Source: Pseudomonas anguilliseptica | GTDB lineage: Bacteria; Pseudomonadota; Gammaproteobacteria; Pseudomonadales; Pseudomonadaceae | Direction: 5' to 3' | Assembly (NCBI RefSeq): GCF_900105355.1 | Contig: NZ_FNSC01000001.1 | Coordinates: 2,232,001-2,296,000, forward strand | Length of the DNA stretch: 64,000 bases | Part shown: positions 25,872 through 33,391 of the stretch, one piece after another | How positions within the stretch are numbered: position 1 is the first letter of the stretch | Layout: every line of letters starts with the position of its first letter | Translations under genes and position numbers: made by a program | The notes under the pieces: model-generated | Seen by the model: the letters and a program-made list of their open reading frames with translations, nothing else | What the model was told of the DNA's origin: nothing | The model's database searches: none

Positions 25872-26004
25872 ATGCCTGTTGATCGCTTATCTGCGGCTCT
25901 GGGGCATTGCCCTGGCTGTGCCAGGCATTGATGCAGGACAAGATGCCGGGTAGTCACCCGACTACATTCAGGGCTCTGTGCTAGCGCATACAAGGAGCCT
26001 GACC

Positions 26005-27085
26005 ATGAGCATGATGAAAGCAGCGGTGTTCATCGAGCCTGGACGCATCGAACTGGTGGGCAAGCCTATTCCTCCCGTGGGGCCCAATGATGCGTTGGTG
26101 CGGATTACCACCACGACCATCTGCGGCACCGATGTGCACATCCTCAAGGGTGAGTACCCGGTAGCCAAGGGGCTGACCATCGGCCACGAGCCGGTCGGCA
26201 TCATCGAGAAGCTGGGCAGCAACGTGCAGGGTTACCAGGAAGGGCAGCGGGTGATTGCCGGGGCCATCTGTCCGAGTTTCAGCTCCTACGCCAGCCAGGA
26301 CGGTCATTCCTCCCAGGATGGCGGCTGCAGCTGCCATGGCTACAAACCCATGGGCGGCTGGCGCTTTGGCAACAGCATCGACGGCACCCAGGCCGAATAC
26401 GTGTTGGTGCCGGATGCTCAGGGAAATCTCGCCCCGGTGCCGGATGGCCTGGCTGACGAGCAGGTACTGATGTGCCCGGACATCATGTCCACCGGGTTTG
26501 CCGGTGCGGAGGCGGCCAATATCAAGATTGGTGATGTGGTGGCGGTGTTCGCCCAGGGGGCCAATTGGCCTGTGCGCCACGGCCGGGGCCAAGCTGCGCG
26601 GGGCGAGCAGCATCATCGTGGTCGATGGCGTCGAGCAGCGTTTGCAGATCGCGCGCAAGATGGGTGCGGACGTCACGCTGAATTTCAATCAGGTTGATGT
26701 GGTCGAGGAGATCCTGCGTCTGACCGGGGGCCGTGGTGTGGATGCGGCCATCGAGGCATTGGGCCTGCAATCCACCTTCGAAAGCGCACTGCGGGTGCTC
26801 AAGCCGGGTGGCACGTTGTCCAGTCTGGGGGTGTATTCAACGGATCTGCTGATTCCCCTGGCGGCGTTTCATGCCGGGCTGGGTGACCACAAGATCGTTA
26901 CCTCACTGTGTCCGGGCGGCAAGGAACGCATGCGCCGGCTGATCAATGTGGTGGCCTCCGGGCGCGTCGATTTCGGCGCGCTGGTGACACACCAGTATTC
27001 GCTGGATGACATCGTCGCGGCCTATGATCTCTTTGCTCACCAGCGCGACGGCGTGCTCAAGGTGGCGATAAAACCCTTTCACTGA
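26005..27085 (+). pseudogene. Zinc-dependent alcohol dehydrogenase, frameshifted at a G5 run
   Basis: From ATG 26005 (after AAGGAGCC) the frame carries the catalytic zinc motif TICGTDVHILKGEYP and GHEPVG of medium-chain dehydrogenases. At 26556-26560 there are five G where four (CAG GGG CCA ATT GGC) would keep the NAD-binding sequence AQGPIGLCA in frame. The remaining protein then continues one frame over to 27085 (ASSIIVVDGVEQRLQIARKMGA to VAIKPFH). Removing one G gives about 359 residues, normal for the family. Unusually, the segment after residue 90 is Ser/Cys/His-rich (SQDGHSSQDGGCSCHGY). The homopolymer makes sequencing error or phase variation plausible. Confidence 0.9.
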
Positions 27086-27115: not shown

Positions 27116-27517
27116 ATGTGGCAACTGCATGGCTATCTGTTAGTGGTGGCGCTGCTGCTGACAGGTTGCAGCACCCAGAGTGAGCGCAGTATTCAGGAGG
27201 TGGCTGGCAGTTGGTCGATTCGCCAGTTCAATGAAAGCAGTTTTGCCCTGGGCAAGAGCAGCCATTACCGCGTTTATCATCGCGGCCAACTGGTGCGTCT
27301 GGCGCCGCCGCTGGTCGAGCGGGAAACCAGTGAGCTGCTGGCGGTAGGCCACTTCAACCCTGGGGTGTTTCCTTATCCGGACCTGGTCGTACTGATGCAT
27401 GACCGCTTTACCAATGCGCAAGGCTATGGCGATGCCAGGCTGCGGGCATTTCAGCTGATCTCCAAGCAGGACAGGTTCGAGGTCGTGCCAGTCGAGATAG
27501 GCGCTGCCGGGTTTTAG
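27116..27517 (+). CDS. Small lipoprotein of unknown function
   Basis: A 133-residue protein with a lipoprotein signal: hydrophobic residues 6-16 followed by the lipobox LLTGC, with Cys18 the probable lipidated residue. The remainder is a beta-rich domain with no named family. It starts 31 bases after the alcohol dehydrogenase pseudogene and overlaps the stop codon of the convergent gspC-like gene by 4 bases. Outer membrane targeting is likely, as the residue after Cys is Ser rather than Asp. Confidence 0.8.
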   Translation: MWQLHGYLLVVALLLTGCSTQSERSIQEVAGSWSIRQFNESSFALGKSSHYRVYHRGQLVRLAPPLVERETSELLAVGHFNPGVFPYPDLVVLMHDRFTNAQGYGDARLRAFQLISKQDRFEVVPVEIGAAGF

Positions 27518-28044
27518 TTGCGGCTGCTGGCCTGACTGAGCAATCCGCTAGCGATGGGGTTGGCTGCAGGTGTAAGCGGCTGGCTGGGTTTGTCCGGGAA
27601 GTGCAGGCTCTCGCGGCGACCGTGGCGCAGCAGGGTGGCATGCTGGCGCTGCACACTCTCAAGGGTGACGCCTGGGGCGATGGTGGCGCCGACCATAAAA
27701 CGCTCAGGGACCTGGCCATCTCTGCCGATGATGGCGCTGGAGCGGCTGCTTTGTGGGTGATTGAAGGCAGCCATCAAGGTCAGTTGCAGGGCGGTGGCCG
27801 GAGCCGGGCCGCTACTGTCGAGTAGAGGGACACCGAACAATTTCGCCAACTGCTGCTGATCTATAACCGGTTGTACAGGGGCTTGCTGCACGGGCGTCAG
27901 GTTGATCGGGCTATGCAGTAAGCGCCAGAACGCCGCGCCCTGATAAGCCAGGCTGATACTGCCGGCCAGCAGAAGCAGCAGACACACGCCGGTGATCAAG
28001 TGTTCCGAGATAACTGGCTGGGCCGGTTGGCTGGGTTGCAACAT
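27514..28044 (-). CDS. GspC-like type II secretion inner membrane protein (orphan)
   Basis: A 176-residue bitopic protein. A short cytoplasmic N-terminus leads to one transmembrane helix (LITGVCLLLLLAGSISLAYQ, residues 16-35), a Pro/Gln-rich linker and the GspC homology region: QLAKLFGVPLL, ALQLTLMAAFNHP, SSAIIGRDGQVPERFMVGATIAPGVTLESV, then LLRHGRRESLHFP. It stops soon after, so the C-terminal PDZ or coiled-coil domain of full GspC is missing (XcpP is about 235 residues). In type II systems this region contacts the N0 domain of the secretin; the matching secretin gene lies 2.8 kb upstream on the same strand. Expression may be lower than the protease because of the terminator in front. Confidence 0.85.
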   Translation of the reverse strand: MLQPSQPAQPVISEHLITGVCLLLLLAGSISLAYQGAAFWRLLHSPINLTPVQQAPVQPVIDQQQLAKLFGVPLLDSSGPAPATALQLTLMAAFNHPQSSRSSAIIGRDGQVPERFMVGATIAPGVTLESVQRQHATLLRHGRRESLHFPDKPSQPLTPAANPIASGLLSQASSRN

Positions 28045-28059
28045 AAAAATTCCTTAATG

Positions 28060-28094
28060 AAAAAGCCCATGGCTGCTAAGGCAGCCATGGGCTT
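28060..28094 (-). terminator. Strong intrinsic terminator between metzincin and gspC-like genes
   Basis: A perfect 14-bp stem (AAGCCCATGGCTGC with its complement, loop of 4) is followed on the minus strand by five T. It lies 16 bases after the metzincin stop and 16 bases before the gspC-like start, so it should limit read-through into gspC. Confidence 0.9.
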
Positions 28095-28109
28095 GGGTAC
28101 TACGGCTTC

Positions 28110-29906
28110 TTACAGCTTGCCGATGCTGACGTTGTCGATAAACAACGACTGTCCGCGTTGCGTGCCAAGGATCAGCAGATCGGCGCGGCGCAGGGTGCCG
28201 GCTGGCAGCTGTACTTCATGCTGCAACTTGCTCCAGCTGCCACCACGGGTGGTGCGCTGGCCAAGTGGCAGGTACTGGCCACGACCATTGCCATCTTCGA
28301 CATACAGATAGGCATAGGCGATGGCGCTGACCGCACTGCTACGACCAATACTCAGATCGGCCGAGACGCGATAACGATTACCGGCCTGAACATTGCCGAG
28401 CAGGCTGACGCTTGCGCCAGAGCCTTCGTACTGACGCTGATAAGCTTCCAGAGCCTGGCGGCTGCCGTTGGCGAACGTGCTGGCGCGGGCCCTGCCATAG
28501 AAGCCAGACCAGCCACCAATGCCGTTCTCGAAGTTCCAGCCGAACTGGGTCGGTGCCGGCGGAGTTGGTGGCGCAGCGGCTTGGGCTTCCTGCAGCTCGA
28601 CTTCATCGACCAGCAGGCTGCTGCCGCTGTCGCTCCAGATCGCCACATACAGATTGCGCACGTTGCTTGGGGCTGTGTAGGTGAAGGTCTTTTCCAGGCG
28701 GCTGAACTCGTTGCCGGTCACCGACAGGTTTGCTGTCTGCTCGACGCTGTAAGTAAAGCGGCCGTCAGTGCTTTCCCGGAGGATCGCCACGCGTACGTTC
28801 TCACGGCTGTCGCGGGCCTTGAGCATGGCTTTGGCTTTCAGGCGATATTTCGCGCCGGTAGTCAGGCCGGTGGCCGGTGTGGCCAGTACATCGAAGGCCT
28901 GTGCATCCATCTGCAGTGCGTTGTCGCGGCAGTTCAGTGCCACATTGACCAGGCTCAGCTGCGCCTGACCGAACAGGGCACGCCAGCCTTGGTTGCTGTT
29001 GAATTCGCCGTTGCTGATCAAACCCTTGAGTGCGGGTTTGCTGCACCAGGGCAGCTCGGCCGGTGGCGTGGTCGGGTTGCCGGTGCCGGGGTTGTTGGTG
29101 ACTGGCACCTGGGTGGCGCGGAAGGCGGCGATCTGCGTGGCCATGACGTTCAGCGAGCGCACGGCATCGGAGCGATCGGGCATGCCGCAAGGCTGGTTGG
29201 CGCAGTCGGCGGCATTCAGGCGTGGGTTGGAAAATACCGGCGCCCGACTGCGCGCGCCGAAGACCTGCGGGTAGGCCATGATGGTGCTGAACTGACCCTG
29301 GACGCCGTAGCCACGGCTCCATTCGTGGGTGCCGTTGTGGCCGTTGGCGTTGTAGTAGCCTCCCTGCTGGTCCTGCTCGTAGGAGTGGCGCAGGCCCATA
29401 TTGTGGCCAACTTCATGGGCGAAGGTGCTGAGGCTGCAGTCGACAGCGGTCAGGCCATAGGCCATTTCCTTGGCGCCGCTGTTGAAACGATCACTGTTCT
29501 TCGCGCCAGTACCCATCCAGGCGATACCGCAGACGCCATAACCCTGGCCCTGGGTGGTGCGGTTGATCAGATGTACCACGTCGGCGCCGTATTGCTCACG
29601 CAGGCGTTTTACCTGGGCGTCATCAGTGAATTTGTTGAGGTTGGCGCCGGACACATCGTAGTAGTTGGCCCAGTCAAGCAGCTGCTTGTGTACCAGGCGC
29701 AGGCGGATATTCACGCCGCTTTTGGCGTAGGCCGTGTTGGTGTATTCGATATAGCTGGCGATGCGTGCGTCGATATCGCGGCCGTTAGGCAGGCTTTGCG
29801 CGTCTTTGGTGTAGAGCACCATGATGTCGACGGTTTCCGGGTTGGCCTGAGCGCTATGGGCGGTCAGGGCCAGTGCGAGGGCGGAGAGCCATTGCACTTT
29901 TTTCAT
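28110..29906 (-). CDS. Secreted metzincin protease with two carbohydrate-binding-like domains
   Basis: A 598-residue exported zinc protease of the reprolysin-like (M12) group. A signal peptide ends near ANA-like residue 22 and the catalytic domain begins almost at once (ETVDIMVLYTKDAQ), so there is no pro-domain. The zinc motif HEVGHNMGLRH is at residues 164-174 and the Met-turn is STIMAYP. Residues 300-455 and 465-598 each look like a CBM4/9-type beta-sandwich (the last ends LFIDNVSIGKL), joined by Pro-rich linkers. Six or more Cys in the catalytic domain suggest disulfides. It is the probable substrate of the GspC/GspD pair encoded beside it; the extracellular target is unknown. Confidence 0.9.
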   Translation of the reverse strand: MKKVQWLSALALALTAHSAQANPETVDIMVLYTKDAQSLPNGRDIDARIASYIEYTNTAYAKSGVNIRLRLVHKQLLDWANYYDVSGANLNKFTDDAQVKRLREQYGADVVHLINRTTQGQGYGVCGIAWMGTGAKNSDRFNSGAKEMAYGLTAVDCSLSTFAHEVGHNMGLRHSYEQDQQGGYYNANGHNGTHEWSRGYGVQGQFSTIMAYPQVFGARSRAPVFSNPRLNAADCANQPCGMPDRSDAVRSLNVMATQIAAFRATQVPVTNNPGTGNPTTPPAELPWCSKPALKGLISNGEFNSNQGWRALFGQAQLSLVNVALNCRDNALQMDAQAFDVLATPATGLTTGAKYRLKAKAMLKARDSRENVRVAILRESTDGRFTYSVEQTANLSVTGNEFSRLEKTFTYTAPSNVRNLYVAIWSDSGSSLLVDEVELQEAQAAAPPTPPAPTQFGWNFENGIGGWSGFYGRARASTFANGSRQALEAYQRQYEGSGASVSLLGNVQAGNRYRVSADLSIGRSSAVSAIAYAYLYVEDGNGRGQYLPLGQRTTRGGSWSKLQHEVQLPAGTLRRADLLILGTQRGQSLFIDNVSIGKL

Positions 29907-29941
29907 ATCAGCATTCCTTGTGCGATGTGGGTAAGCGGTGA

Positions 29942-30622
29942 TCAGCCCTGGGTGGGCGGTGGCAGCGGAGCCAGTTCTTTATGGTCGTAGTGCAGGCTGT
30001 CGTTGGGATCGGCCCGCATTACCAGCTGGTTTTCATCGGTGATCACCGTCTTGCCGGTGGCGTTATCGATGATGATCGACAGGCTGCCGTCGAGCGTGGC
30101 GACGGTGATATGGGTCTCCAGCGCGCCCTTCACCAGGGTCATGCTTTCCACCTCGTCGCCATCGATCAGGCTGCCTTGCCATACGGCGCTGCCGGCGGTG
30201 TTGCGGGTTTCGCCGAGGGTGGCGCGGGTTGGGCTGTTGCGCCCCGGCAGTGCCAGGGAAACCACCTGGCCGAGCGCAAGGTTGCTGAGTTGCTGTGGGT
30301 CGACCTGGGTCAGGTGCTGAGTGATGCCATTGCTTTCGGTTTCCTGCAGCGAGTCTGCGTCCCAGAGCGTGGCCTGTGCGGCGCTGCTAGTGGTCACGGG
30401 CGGTTTGGCCTGCAGGGTGGAGACGCCGCTGGCGCCTTGGCTGGCTGCCTGGCTCGCGGGCGCGGCTGTGCTCTGGCTGGGCGCGGACGATTTGCCGCCC
30501 TCGCTGTTGTTCGATGCTGCTTGGGTTGGCTTTGGCTGCTCAAGGTCAGCCGAGAGCACGACCCCCAAGACGCCGCCGACAATGGCGGTGGCGACTGCGG
30601 CTGTAATCCAGCGTTTTGACAT
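29942..30622 (-). CDS. Membrane-anchored protein resembling a metzincin pro-domain
   Basis: A 226-residue protein with an N-terminal signal anchor (ITAAVATAIVGGVLGVVLS), a Ser/Ala/Gln-rich linker of about 60 residues and a C-terminal domain near residues 105-205. That domain contains LALPGRNSPTRATLGE, GSAVWQGSLIDGDEVESMTL and VATLDGSLSIII, which resembles the region that precedes the catalytic domain in single-chain bacterial M12-type proteases (a strand with LALPDG, then sWxGxl, then dGxxyxi). The gene lies 35 bases upstream of the metzincin, which lacks this region. I infer a trans-acting pro-domain, chaperone or inhibitor; this is by eye and needs a profile search. Confidence 0.65.
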   Translation of the reverse strand: MSKRWITAAVATAIVGGVLGVVLSADLEQPKPTQAASNNSEGGKSSAPSQSTAAPASQAASQGASGVSTLQAKPPVTTSSAAQATLWDADSLQETESNGITQHLTQVDPQQLSNLALGQVVSLALPGRNSPTRATLGETRNTAGSAVWQGSLIDGDEVESMTLVKGALETHITVATLDGSLSIIIDNATGKTVITDENQLVMRADPNDSLHYDHKELAPLPPPTQG

Positions 30623-30811
30623 GCGACTGCTCCATTAGTCTGGAAAGTTGAAGCTGCGCAGTCTAGGTAGAGCCTTTGCGGCTATTCGTTATGCAGTTCA
30701 CAGGCAGAGGGTATGGGCAGGGCCAGCTTATTTAATTTGGACGCTGGTCTCATATGGAGAGTGTGCCACGTCTCGCTGGAAATGGGGCACAGTTCCAGTC
30801 AGCTCGGTTAT

Positions 30812-30838
30812 GGCGTTGCTGCGCGGTGTCGCAACGCC
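30812..30838. terminator. Hairpin between secretin and pro-domain-like genes
   Basis: GGCGTTGC and GCAACGCC form an 8-bp stem 7 bases after the secretin stop. There is no T-run. In the 223-base gap that follows I see no gene; it may carry a promoter for the pro-domain and protease genes. Confidence 0.35.
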
Positions 30839-30845
30839 TCTTTGC

Positions 30846-33095
30846 TTACTCGGGTTGGGCGCTAGCGCCGCGTCTGGGCAGCTGTTCAGGCAAAACGGCC
30901 AGGGCTTTGAGCGCTGTCTCGCGGTTCGGGTAGCTGCCATAGAGCACGGCGTAGCGGGTTTCCCCGGCCTGCGTGCTCTCGGCCAGACGCAGGGGCTGCT
31001 TGGGGTGGCGTTCAAGCAGGGCCTGCATAAATTCGCGGCTGCTGCCTTCGACCAGCTGGATGGTGTGGCGGCGCGCTGCAACCTTGGGTTTGCTTTCGCC
31101 GCCACGGCCATCGCCCAGGGTGGCCGGGTCGACAGGTTTTGGCGTTTCGATCAGGGTCTTGCTCGGTTTTGCCGGGATGGCTTTGGCCGGCTGGCGCAGG
31201 TCGGTTGCGGCTGCCTCAATGCCCTGGTCGAACAAGGCATGGGCCTGCTGCGGTAGATGGTCGTAACCGTTGGCCTGGCCGAGCAGGCGCAGGTCGCGGT
31301 ATTTGCCCAGGCTCAGGTTGGCCAGGCCGACGCCGTCGCGTGCCACGGTCGGGCGCAGGAACACCATCAGGTTGCGTTTCTGCCGCGCTTCGCGGGTTGA
31401 GCGGAACAGCCGGCCGATCCCTGGGATATCGCCGAGCAGCGGCACCTTACTCTCGCTGCTGGTGATGTCGTCCTGAATCAGGCCGCCGAGCACGATCACC
31501 TGGCCATCATCGGCCAGCACGGTGCTCTTGATCGAGCGCTTGTTGGTCACCAGATCCACGGCCTGGGCATTGAGCCCGGTGCTCGGGGCAATGGAGGATA
31601 TTTCTTGCTCGATCACCAGGCGCAGGGTGGCGCCTTCATTGATATGCGGGGTGACCTTGAGAGTAACGCCGATATCCTTGCGTTCGATGGTGGTAAAAGG
31701 GTTGCTCGAACCGGCGGCGTCGGTCGTGTAAGACCCTGTTTGGAACGGTACGTTTTGGCCGACCAAAATCTCGGCAGACTGGTTGTCCAGCGTTAGCAGA
31801 GTTGGGGTGGAGAGCAGGTTACTTTTGCCGGTCGACGACAGTGCCGTAATCAGTGCGCCAAAGTTATCGTTACCAACCCCGAAGATCGCCCCGTTGGGCA
31901 GTGTCTTAGCCAGATCGCCTGTCTCTTTGCTGGCGATGGCGCCGAGTAGGGTGCCGACGGATAGCCCGGTATTGCTGAAGTTGACCCCTCCTAGGCCACT
32001 GCCACCGCGGCCATCAATGGCCCACTGCACGCCGAGAGCGTCACTGATGTCACCGGACATCTCGACAATAGCGGCCTCCACCAGCACCTGGGCGCGGGGT
32101 ATATCCAGCTGGCGCACCAGATCCTCGAACATATTGACGATATCGGCCTCGGCCATGATGACGATGGCGTTGAGGCTTTCGTCAGCGCGAATCATCAGCT
32201 TGAGCGGTGTGGCGTTTTCGTTGCCTTGACTCTGGCTCAGGTTGTCGCCGAAGTCACCGAGGGTCTTCGCCATCTCCTTGGCATCGCCATGGCGCAAACG
32301 GATAACCCGGGTATTGGTCGAGCGCGAGCTGGGCGTGTCGAGGCTCTGCGCCAGCTTCAATAGGCGCGCGCGGGCATCGCTGGGGCCGAGCAGCAGCAGA
32401 CGGTTGGCGCGGGTATCGGCAATCACCTGGGCACCGCTGGCCTGGGCGTTTTTCAGCGAACTGTTGATCACCGCTGCCAGCTCATGAACCCAGGCATGGC
32501 GCAGGTCATAGACGCTGAAATCGTCCTGGTTCTGGCTGTCCAGCTGGCGGATGATCTCGTCGATGCGGGCGATATTGGCCGGGGTGTCGCTGATGATCAG
32601 GCTGTTGGAGGAGGGCACGGCGGCCAGATGACCATGGTTGGCGACCAGCGGGCGAATCAGCGGCAGCAGGTCGTTGGCGGCGCCGTGTTGTACCTGCAGT
32701 ACACGAGTTTCCAGGTTGCCGTTGCTGCCTGCGGTGGTCTTGGCCTCGCTACTGGGAATGATGCTCAGCTGATTGCCCTGAGGCATCACGGCGAAACCAT
32801 GGGTGCTCATCACCGAGAGGAACAGCTTGTAGACCTCGGCGATATTCATCGGCTGCTGGGCAATCACCGTGACCTGACCTTTTACCCGCGGGTCGATGAT
32901 AAAGGTCTGCCCACTGATGCTGGATATCTGCTCGATAAAGTCGCGAATTTCCGCACTCTGCATATTGATCGTCCAGCTGTCCTCGCTCTGTGCAGGCGCT
33001 TCGGTCGACGCATTGGCCTGGCTGGCGATGCTCAGCAACAGGGCGGTGTGCAGCAGTAGCAGGCGGAAAAGTGGGCGCAGGGCAGGCGTGATCAT
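30846..33095 (-). CDS. Orphan type II secretin (GspD-like) with C-terminal SPOR-like domain
   Basis: A 749-residue outer membrane secretin from ATG 33095. After a signal peptide (LLLLHTALLLSIASQANA) come the N0 domain (WTINMQSAEIRDFIEQISSI), N1-N3 repeats (RVLQVQHGAANDLLPLIRPL is typical) and the secretin core, ending with VPLLGDIPGIGRLFRS and LMVFLRP. About 100 residues of linker rich in Pro and Lys follow, then a last segment of about 75 residues (HTIQLVEGSSREFMQALLE, then YAVLYGSYPNRETALKALAVLP) that matches the pattern of SPOR domains such as that of DamX. Ordinary GspD ends in a pilotin-binding S-domain instead. The longer upstream frame adds 69 residues with no signal peptide. Confidence 0.9.
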   Translation of the reverse strand: MITPALRPLFRLLLLHTALLLSIASQANASTEAPAQSEDSWTINMQSAEIRDFIEQISSISGQTFIIDPRVKGQVTVIAQQPMNIAEVYKLFLSVMSTHGFAVMPQGNQLSIIPSSEAKTTAGSNGNLETRVLQVQHGAANDLLPLIRPLVANHGHLAAVPSSNSLIISDTPANIARIDEIIRQLDSQNQDDFSVYDLRHAWVHELAAVINSSLKNAQASGAQVIADTRANRLLLLGPSDARARLLKLAQSLDTPSSRSTNTRVIRLRHGDAKEMAKTLGDFGDNLSQSQGNENATPLKLMIRADESLNAIVIMAEADIVNMFEDLVRQLDIPRAQVLVEAAIVEMSGDISDALGVQWAIDGRGGSGLGGVNFSNTGLSVGTLLGAIASKETGDLAKTLPNGAIFGVGNDNFGALITALSSTGKSNLLSTPTLLTLDNQSAEILVGQNVPFQTGSYTTDAAGSSNPFTTIERKDIGVTLKVTPHINEGATLRLVIEQEISSIAPSTGLNAQAVDLVTNKRSIKSTVLADDGQVIVLGGLIQDDITSSESKVPLLGDIPGIGRLFRSTREARQKRNLMVFLRPTVARDGVGLANLSLGKYRDLRLLGQANGYDHLPQQAHALFDQGIEAAATDLRQPAKAIPAKPSKTLIETPKPVDPATLGDGRGGESKPKVAARRHTIQLVEGSSREFMQALLERHPKQPLRLAESTQAGETRYAVLYGSYPNRETALKALAVLPEQLPRRGASAQPE

Positions 33096-33391
33096 GGCTA
33101 GGGCATCAGTAAGTGTGGCCGTAATGCACTGCCGCAGCCGACGCAAGGTCGGACAAGAAAAGGCTGGAGGCGCTGTTTGAATGAGCGAAAACGGCTGCAA
33201 CCAGCACTGCGAGCAGTGTTGGGGGCGCAAGGCTAATGAAAAAAATCGGCAGTTGTTGAGGCGTGATGGCGATCTGCGATGATCGTCACAGTCGGTCGGC
33301 AATTTGTTGCCAGGGCGTGATGGGCGTCAGTTGGCGATTACGCCTGCAAGCGGGAGCCCTTGGTCAGGCTCCCGATCAGTTCGCCAGCAGC

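What the first reader, a model, noticed from the sequence alone, without database searches (positions are those of the whole stretch)
27514..33095. Orphan secretin/GspC cluster built around one metzincin protease
Four minus-strand genes stand together: a GspD-like secretin, a membrane-anchored pro-domain-like protein, a metzincin with two carbohydrate-binding-like domains, and a short GspC-like protein. Seen: GspD and GspC signatures, the HEVGHNMGLRH zinc motif, and no gspE, F, G-K, L or M gene nearby. Known: GspC and GspD determine substrate choice in type II secretion, and P. aeruginosa has a separate orphan C/D pair (XphA/XqhA) that uses the Xcp machine. Inferred: this is a specificity cassette for one protease, carrying substrate, pro-domain and outer membrane gate in one locus, set between conserved trmB and hemW neighbours.
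Basis: partly seen in the sequence, partly recalled or inferred. Interest (0 to 1): 0.82.

Follow-up and report, generated by a model that had tools for sequence, protein, structure and literature searches.

The report
Second exit gate beside one protease
In this Pseudomonas, the two gate parts of a protein export machine are encoded on either side of one secreted protease and its inhibitor, away from the rest of the machine, which suggests a separate export door that travels with its cargo.

Summary
On the minus strand, 27514-33095, lie a GspD-type secretin with a C-terminal SPOR domain (D2), BamI, the metzincin Mep72, and a short GspC-like protein (C2). BamI and Mep72 are orthologues of a known P. 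aeruginosa pair. BamI's predicted fold matches a chain of the CpaA chaperone complex and metzincin prodomains, so 'pro-domain-like' was apt. The genome has one complete T2SS (xcp, C-D/E-M) elsewhere; 7 of 7 linked-cassette genomes tested have exactly one GspE, so two gates share one motor. D2 groups with P. aeruginosa XqhA (95/83), not with the genome's own XcpQ. Among 398 Pseudomonadaceae genomes, 16 of 17 D2-type secretins found lie beside a secreted hydrolase: Mep72 (7), an M66 StcE/TagA-type metzincin (6), pectate lyase (2), LasA-like (1). The M66 cases repeat the order D-metzincin-GspC-like. Against strict dependence, P. fluvialis and one close relative keep bamI-mep72 in the same slot without D2 and C2. 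Best reading: an alternative GspC/D gate for the Xcp machine, tied to one substrate (0.6). Specificity is inferred, not shown. New variant of a known kind.

The parts
30846..33095 (-). D2: GspD-type secretin, 749 aa from ATG (ORF open to TTG at 33302), N0-N-Secretin-SPOR
   Evidence: TIGR02517 519 bits, PF00263 175 bits, PF21305 86 bits, PF05036 29.6 bits; 61% identical to own XcpQ
30888..31073 (-). SPOR domain of D2 (residues 744-805 of the 818-aa ORF)
   Evidence: PF05036 29.6 bits against cut-off 21; no SPOR match in own XcpQ at E up to 1
30623..30845 (-). 223-bp gap between D2 and bamI, long enough for a separate bamI-mep72 promoter
   Evidence: sequence; no promoter scan was run
29942..30622 (-). 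bamI: N-terminal hydrophobic anchor (by eye), variable linker, C-terminal CpaB/metzincin-prodomain-like domain (about residues 82-206)
   Evidence: NF052435 263 bits; model and fold search; alignment A1 of 16 sequences
28110..29906 (-). mep72: M12B-type metzincin with HEVGHNMGLRH and two CBM_4_9 stretches
   Evidence: NF052434 771 bits, PF13582 94 bits, PF02018 59 bits
28060..28094 (-). 14-pair hairpin running into a T5 tract between mep72 and C2: intrinsic-terminator-like
   Evidence: stem in all 10 distinct loci with C2, T-run of 4 or more in 9 of 10
27514..28044 (-). C2: short GspC-like protein, N-terminal hydrophobic segment (by eye) plus HR domain, no long extension after it
   Evidence: PF11356 55.6 bits, residues 29-148; alignment A3
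33275..33290 (.). Vfr/CRP-like palindrome TGCGATGATCGTCACA about 180 bp before the D2 ATG; only site with at most 1 mismatch in the window
   Evidence: consensus recalled; no chance expectation computed; weak evidence

Best explanation
D2 and C2 are a second outer-membrane gate (GspD) and its inner-membrane clamp (GspC) for the single Xcp type II machine of this cell, kept next to and probably favouring one substrate, Mep72. Proposed order of events: Mep72 enters the periplasm by Sec (inferred from family). BamI, anchored in the inner membrane, folds against the protease like a prodomain supplied in trans and holds it inactive (binding and detoxification shown in P. aeruginosa; fold predicted here). 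C2 docks by its HR domain on the N0 domain of D2 and by its membrane segment on the Xcp platform in place of XcpP (inferred). D2, tethered to peptidoglycan by its SPOR tail (inferred), replaces XcpQ in some machines. The Xcp motor and pseudopilus then push Mep72 out through D2 and BamI stays behind (inferred). The hairpin between mep72 and C2 would make cargo more abundant than gate (inferred).
Against: Mep72 occurs without a D2-type secretin in 6 of 19 genomes, and G109 and P. fluvialis keep bamI-mep72 in the same slot without D2 and C2, so D2 is not obligatory for Mep72 in general. In 6 of 13 genomes that have both, D2 is not beside Mep72. D2 without Mep72: 4 of 17. Co-localisation can reflect shared regulation rather than recognition. 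C2 lacks the C-terminal GspC domain that is tied to some substrates in Vibrio and Dickeya (PMC12369372, passages). No residue-level evidence for gate-cargo matching was sought or obtained. The association test ignores shared ancestry.
Confidence: 0.6

Rival explanations
1. D2/C2 is a general second gate for all Xcp substrates, used under other conditions (for example in biofilms, or when quorum-sensing-driven xcpPQ is low). Its place beside bamI-mep72 gives co-expression, not recognition.
For: XphA/XqhA is described as regulated by environment and not by quorum sensing, unlike the rest of Xcp (PMC6567927, passage); in one transcriptome xphA/xqhA rise 6.6- and 6.9-fold while the xcp genes in the passage fall (PMC9602442, passage); xphA, xqhA, mep72 and bamI all appear in one long list of genes lowered at least 3-fold by a LolCDE inhibitor (PMC7685553, passage). 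A Vfr-like site lies before D2. bamI-mep72 persists without D2/C2.
Against: Does not by itself explain why D2-type secretins in separate lineages sit beside different secreted hydrolases.
Confidence: 0.25
2. D2 and C2 are neutral or decaying leftovers of a former second T2SS, adjacent to mep72 by chance of insertion in a variable slot between trmB and hemW.
For: The slot varies between genomes; C2 is short and in most linked loci more diverged than the other three proteins.
Against: The four ORFs are intact in the linked loci examined (D2, BamI, C2, Mep72); order is fixed in 9 genomes; no other remnant of a second T2SS (one GspE, two GspC); D2 and C2, separated by bamI-mep72, are both missing where one is missing.
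Confidence: 0.08
3. D2/C2 works with another trans-envelope machine of the cell (a type IV pilus or MSHA-like motor) rather than with Xcp.
For: Three further GspE-like ATPases below cut-off exist in the genome.
Against: D2 is a GspD by curated model (519 bits; PilQ model 220 bits, below its cut-off 284); the only other GspC lies in xcp; a PilQ-like secretin is present separately.
Confidence: 0.07

Closest known systems
XphA/XqhA of Pseudomonas aeruginosa (alternative GspC/GspD used with the Xcp machine; Michel et al. 2007, known to me from citing passages and recall; the paper is not held)
   Same: Second GspC/GspD pair outside xcp; secretin in the same clade (95/83); the XphA-like protein of G126 is also short, with no extension after HR (by eye).
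   Different: XphA-XqhA-like genes are adjacent (L070); here C2 and D2 enclose bamI-mep72. In the XqhA-bearing genome G126 the nearest secreted hydrolase seen is a LasA-like M23 protein, third gene downstream, and Mep72 is elsewhere.
Mep72/BamI (PA2783/PA2782) of P. aeruginosa (PMC4334185)
   Same: Protease and inhibitor above curated cut-offs; same bamI-mep72 order.
   Different: In P. aeruginosa the pair is bicistronic and no cotranscription with PA2781 or PA2784 was found (passage); xphA/xqhA bear the distant tags PA1867/PA1868.
CpaA/CpaB of Acinetobacter (T2SS metzincin with membrane-anchored chaperone; PDB 6o38; PMC4713064)
   Different: No dedicated GspC/D beside cpaAB is mentioned in the passages seen; BamI shows no sequence match in the PDB search.
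StcE/TagA-type M66 metzincin cassettes in Stutzerimonas-like G227/G233 and in g12 genomes (found here)
   Same: Order secretin - metzincin - GspC-like (HR domain).
   Different: Substrate is an M66/TagA/ricin lipoprotein-like protein; the HR protein lacks the long membrane segment of C2 (by eye); no BamI gene in these loci was seen.

Membership tests
Mep72 (NF052434) | Score over NCBI cut-off; metzincin zinc motif; CBM domains | tested here: met
   771 bits against 645; HEVGHNMGLRH; CBM_4_9
Mep72 (NF052434) | Secreted through T2SS | not testable with these tools
   Shown for P. aeruginosa (PMC4334185, passage)
BamI (NF052435) | Score over NCBI cut-off, upstream of mep72 | tested here: met
   263 bits against 180; 35-bp gap to mep72
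CpaB-type T2SS chaperones | Adjacent to cognate effector, CpaB-like fold | tested here: met
CpaB-type T2SS chaperones | N-terminal membrane anchor | not tested
   hydrophobic N-terminus read by eye; no predictor run
CpaB-type T2SS chaperones | Required for secretion of its protease | not testable with these tools
   needs a deletion
GspD | N0, N domains, secretin domain, TIGR02517 over cut-off | tested here: met
   519 bits against 351
GspC | HR domain over PF11356 cut-off | tested here: met
   55.6 bits against 27
GspC | C-terminal PDZ or coiled coil after HR (not universal) | tested here: not met
   C2 ends about 28 residues after HR; own XcpP-like protein continues further
XphA/XqhA pair | Extra GspC/D outside xcp, one shared motor | tested here: met
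XphA/XqhA pair | Secretin in XqhA clade | tested here: met
   95/83; which P. aeruginosa protein is XqhA rests on species names given by a source (P0107, P0145) and on a recalled length of 776 aa (P0097)
XphA/XqhA pair | gspC and gspD adjacent | tested here: not met
   bamI-mep72 lie between
XphA/XqhA pair | Functions with Xcp core | not testable with these tools
   needs genetics
Complete second T2SS | Own gspE-M | tested here: not met
   none in the window; one GspE over cut-off in the genome

The most novel reading that the evidence does not exclude
Alternative T2SS gates in Pseudomonadaceae are substrate-dedicated and travel with their cargo: secretin - (chaperone) - metzincin - GspC is a recurring specificity cassette that re-programmes one Xcp motor, assembled more than once with different proteases (Mep72, M66 StcE/TagA-type, perhaps LasA and a pectate lyase).
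Probability: 0.4. Interest if true: 0.8.

Novelty: new variant of a known kind. Interest (0 to 1): 0.62.

Why it matters
How type II machines choose their cargo is unresolved. If gates co-travel with cargo, these loci give natural matched pairs (D2 with Mep72, other D2-type secretins with M66, LasA-like or pectate lyase proteins), in the window's group and in two Stutzerimonas-like genomes on a single GspE motor, so recognition by GspC/GspD can be tested by deletion and binding without building chimeras. It also gives BamI a likely mechanism (a prodomain supplied in trans, CpaB-like) and a reason why the P. aeruginosa xcpP-Z deletion does not settle which gate Mep72 uses.

Tried and rejected
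Pfam (E up to 5) and PDB sequence searches with BamI gave no credible relative; only the predicted fold did. The Vfr-like site was not pursued. A second T2SS in the genome was looked for and not found. The D2-type set was defined by alignment reaching the SPOR end of D2 (query residue 742 or more); it is not one clade: g12 secretins and the P. indica-like ones lie outside the XqhA clade, so 'D2-type' is a structural label. Only the best 3 candidates per genome were scored and the best 2, so the D2-type counts are lower bounds, where all candidates of 18 Mep72 genomes were scored, the six without D2 stayed without. G155 was dropped from the 18 hits because its match stops at residue 638 (XcpQ-like). 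G194 (49% identity) counts in the 298-genome tables but not among the 17 of 398, as it falls below that call's threshold; none of the four hydrolases lies beside it. Atopomonas (G026) is the exception among the 17: its D2-type secretin is its xcp gspD and has none of the four hydrolases within about 8 kb. Negative control: 0 of 5 XcpQ-type loci (L047, L083-L086) have one of them; this control is biased because the hydrolases were chosen from D2-type neighbourhoods. Neighbour genes were called by a codon-usage script trained on 14 genes; short or atypical genes may be missed. The small protein of the g12 cassettes, seen in L071-L073 and not separately called in L074, passes no Pfam cut-off (best 21.4 bits); its model (mean pLDDT 66) has no PDB match at E 0.001 or better; the best are a PilP model (3jc8, E 1.7e-3) and GspC HR (3oss_C, E 5e-3, 1.6 A over 63 columns). 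No GspC over cut-off lies beside D2 in g12, and none was found beside D2 in G020/G003. For P. fluvialis only the locus, not the genome, was examined. Secretin trees hold a hand-picked sample: 35 of the 120 listed homologues (of 7152 found) plus 18 locus rows; G063, G307 and G040 are not in it. The first tree had very long outgroup branches; these two rows and three other long ones were left out. Rooting is uncertain. P0055, P0056 and P0051, the nearest sister secretins, could not be checked for mep72 beside them. Paper searches for an orphan or second gspC/D next to a substrate, or for xqhA with mep72, were seen as listings (for example 15 of 102 and 12 of 34 rows); nothing in them describes this, and most subscription papers are not held.
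Full report
What is there. The four minus-strand genes are real and intact at 27514-33095. In transcription order they are D2 (GspD with SPOR tail), BamI, Mep72 and C2 (short GspC). Curated models name the middle two: Mep72 771 bits (cut-off 645) and BamI 263 bits (cut-off 180). D2 passes the GspD model (519 against 351) and C2 the T2SSC model (55.6 against 27). The genome is a Pseudomonas, probably close to P. anguilliseptica: the nearest C2, 97% identical, bears that name. The assembly has 5.23 Mb in 3 contigs.

Is it orphan? Yes. The whole genome has two GspC, four secretins over the Pfam cut-off (D2; a PilQ-like one with pilO/pilP-like genes before it, by eye; XcpQ; and a short one of 269 aa), and one GspE over the curated cut-off among four GspE-like ATPases. 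The xcp locus, about 1.19 Mb along the contig, holds C-D divergent from E, F, G, H, I, J, K, L, M (genes named by size, order and sequence by eye, with C, D and E also by family search). So D2/C2 has no core of its own and must share the Xcp core or do nothing with a T2SS.

Conservation. Named genome scan: 8 loci with close Mep72 relatives; 5 carry the full cassette, 1 is cut by its contig end (Mep72 and C2 seen), 2 have bamI-mep72 only. Family survey: Mep72 in 18 of 298 and 19 of 398 genomes; D2-type secretins in 17 of 298 (including G194) and 17 of 398 (after dropping G155), both lower bounds because only the top candidates were scored. Both occur in 13 of 398; linked in 7 of these 13 (G000, G063, G147, G197, G289, G292, G307). 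D2 only: 4; Mep72 only: 6. Fisher p = 7e-17 (398 genomes) and 1.4e-8 within the 115 of 298 genomes that have an Xcp-type secretin, without correction for ancestry. In the linked genomes the slot is metW-DUF4426-rdgB-hemW-(DUF3392)-D2-bamI-mep72-C2; DUF3392 lies beyond C2 in P. alcaliphila. In G109 and in P. fluvialis bamI-mep72 sits in the same slot without D2 and C2; G109 has none elsewhere either, P. fluvialis was not searched beyond the locus. On the Mep72 tree G109 is sister to the linked P. alcaliphila (100/100), so D2 and C2, which lie on opposite sides of bamI-mep72, were lost together or gained together twice. This suggests that D2 and C2 are a unit, and shows that Mep72 can be kept without them.

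What D2 is. On a secretin tree of 48 hand-picked rows (628 columns filled in at least 80% of rows, which drops the tail) D2 groups with Stutzerimonas D2-type secretins and the P. aeruginosa secretins taken to be XqhA (95/83); own XcpQ is in another clade (99/97). Own XcpQ has no SPOR match, D2 does. A SPOR domain is expected to bind peptidoglycan (established knowledge of the family); its role here is inferred.

The wider pattern. The neighbourhoods of all 17 D2-type secretins were fetched and read. Seven: Mep72. Two (G227, G233): gspC - D2 - M66/TagA/ricin protein - HR-only GspC-like protein, next to a T2SS core from E on; these two genomes also have one GspE over cut-off and a second, XcpQ-type secretin elsewhere, so again two gates on one motor. 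Four (G122, G108, G040, G052): D2 - M66/TagA/ricin protein, followed in the three where it was called by a small protein whose model resembles GspC HR and PilP, with no gspE or gspF match nearby; the M66 domain was scanned in G122, and the others follow by 90-92% identity. These four genomes have 3-4 GspE over cut-off each, so which motor would serve D2 there is open. Two (G020, G003): a pectate lyase gene about 0.7 kb upstream (the second by 73% identity). One (G126, XqhA-like): XphA-like gene upstream, LasA-like M23 protein as third gene downstream. One (Atopomonas G026): the D2-type secretin is the xcp gspD itself. Thus 16 of 17 lie beside a secreted-type hydrolase, and they fall in separate places on the tree. 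The order secretin - metzincin - GspC-like occurs with two different metzincin families. This recurrence is the strongest argument for a functional link between gate and cargo; the count was made after seeing the neighbours and the control (0 of 5 XcpQ-type loci) is biased in the same way.

Mechanism. Shown elsewhere: Mep72 leaves by the Xcp pathway in P. aeruginosa (deletion of xcpP-Z), BamI binds it, and XphA/XqhA forms a hybrid with Xcp (review passage). Shown here: one GspE and two gates in the linked genomes tested (7 of 7 for GspE; 6 of 6 for two GspC and two GspD). Inferred: D2/C2 replaces XcpQ/XcpP in part of the machines and favours Mep72. The xcpP-Z deletion removes the motor as well as the gate, so it fits either gate. 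C2 lacks a domain after HR; in V. cholerae that GspC region is needed for one substrate only (PMC12369372, abstract and passages), so if C2/D2 is selective, recognition more likely lies in D2 N-domains or BamI. A 14-pair hairpin between mep72 and C2 is present in all 10 distinct loci with C2, with base changes on both sides of the stem (by eye), and runs into 4 or more T in 9 of 10; it would lower C2 relative to Mep72.

Against the reading. Mep72 persists without D2 in 6 of 19 genomes; in 6 of 13 the two are apart; P. aeruginosa transcript data fit a condition-specific general gate as well. No experiment on these genes in this organism was seen. I therefore give 0.6 to a substrate-tied alternative gate and 0.25 to a general, condition-specific one.

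Verdict. A real and conserved arrangement made of known parts in a new combination: a new variant of the XphA/XqhA kind, with a testable claim about T2SS cargo choice.

Noticed in passing
L060, L061, L062, L063 (G108, G040, G052, G122): Two divergent bamI-mep72 operons stand with their bamI genes about 0.6-1.1 kb apart in all four g12 genomes; their Mep72 copies fall in two separate branches of the Mep72 tree (G108 and G122 in the tree).
   Followed up: partly
L051, L053 (G063, G197): A second, diverged bamI-mep72 pair (51% identical Mep72) lies elsewhere in genomes that have the linked cassette.
   Followed up: no
window 25978-27085: A zinc alcohol dehydrogenase-like gene is split over two frames here, while relatives L016, L017, L020 match the two parts next to each other, apparently in one frame.
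   Followed up: no
L069:8201-11253 (Atopomonas, G026): The only Xcp-type GspD seen in Atopomonas is the long kind with a SPOR-like tail (20.2 bits, just under cut-off 21), which suggests that the short XcpQ lost a tail.
   Followed up: partly
L083, L084, L085, L086: In four g15 (Stutzerimonas-like) genomes the XcpQ-type gspC-gspD pair has no core T2SS gene within about 7-9 kb, while gspE lies elsewhere.
   Followed up: partly
L079:7599-10288 (G194): A distant D2-type secretin (742 aa, about 47% identical) with a weak GspC-like gene just upstream (27 bits in my own profile); only a weak GspF-like ORF (25%) about 6 kb away.
   Followed up: no
window 27116-27517: Small lipoprotein-like gene convergent with C2, overlapping it by 4 bases; no Pfam or NCBIfam match; present beside C2 in L015, L016, L020, L054.
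   Followed up: no
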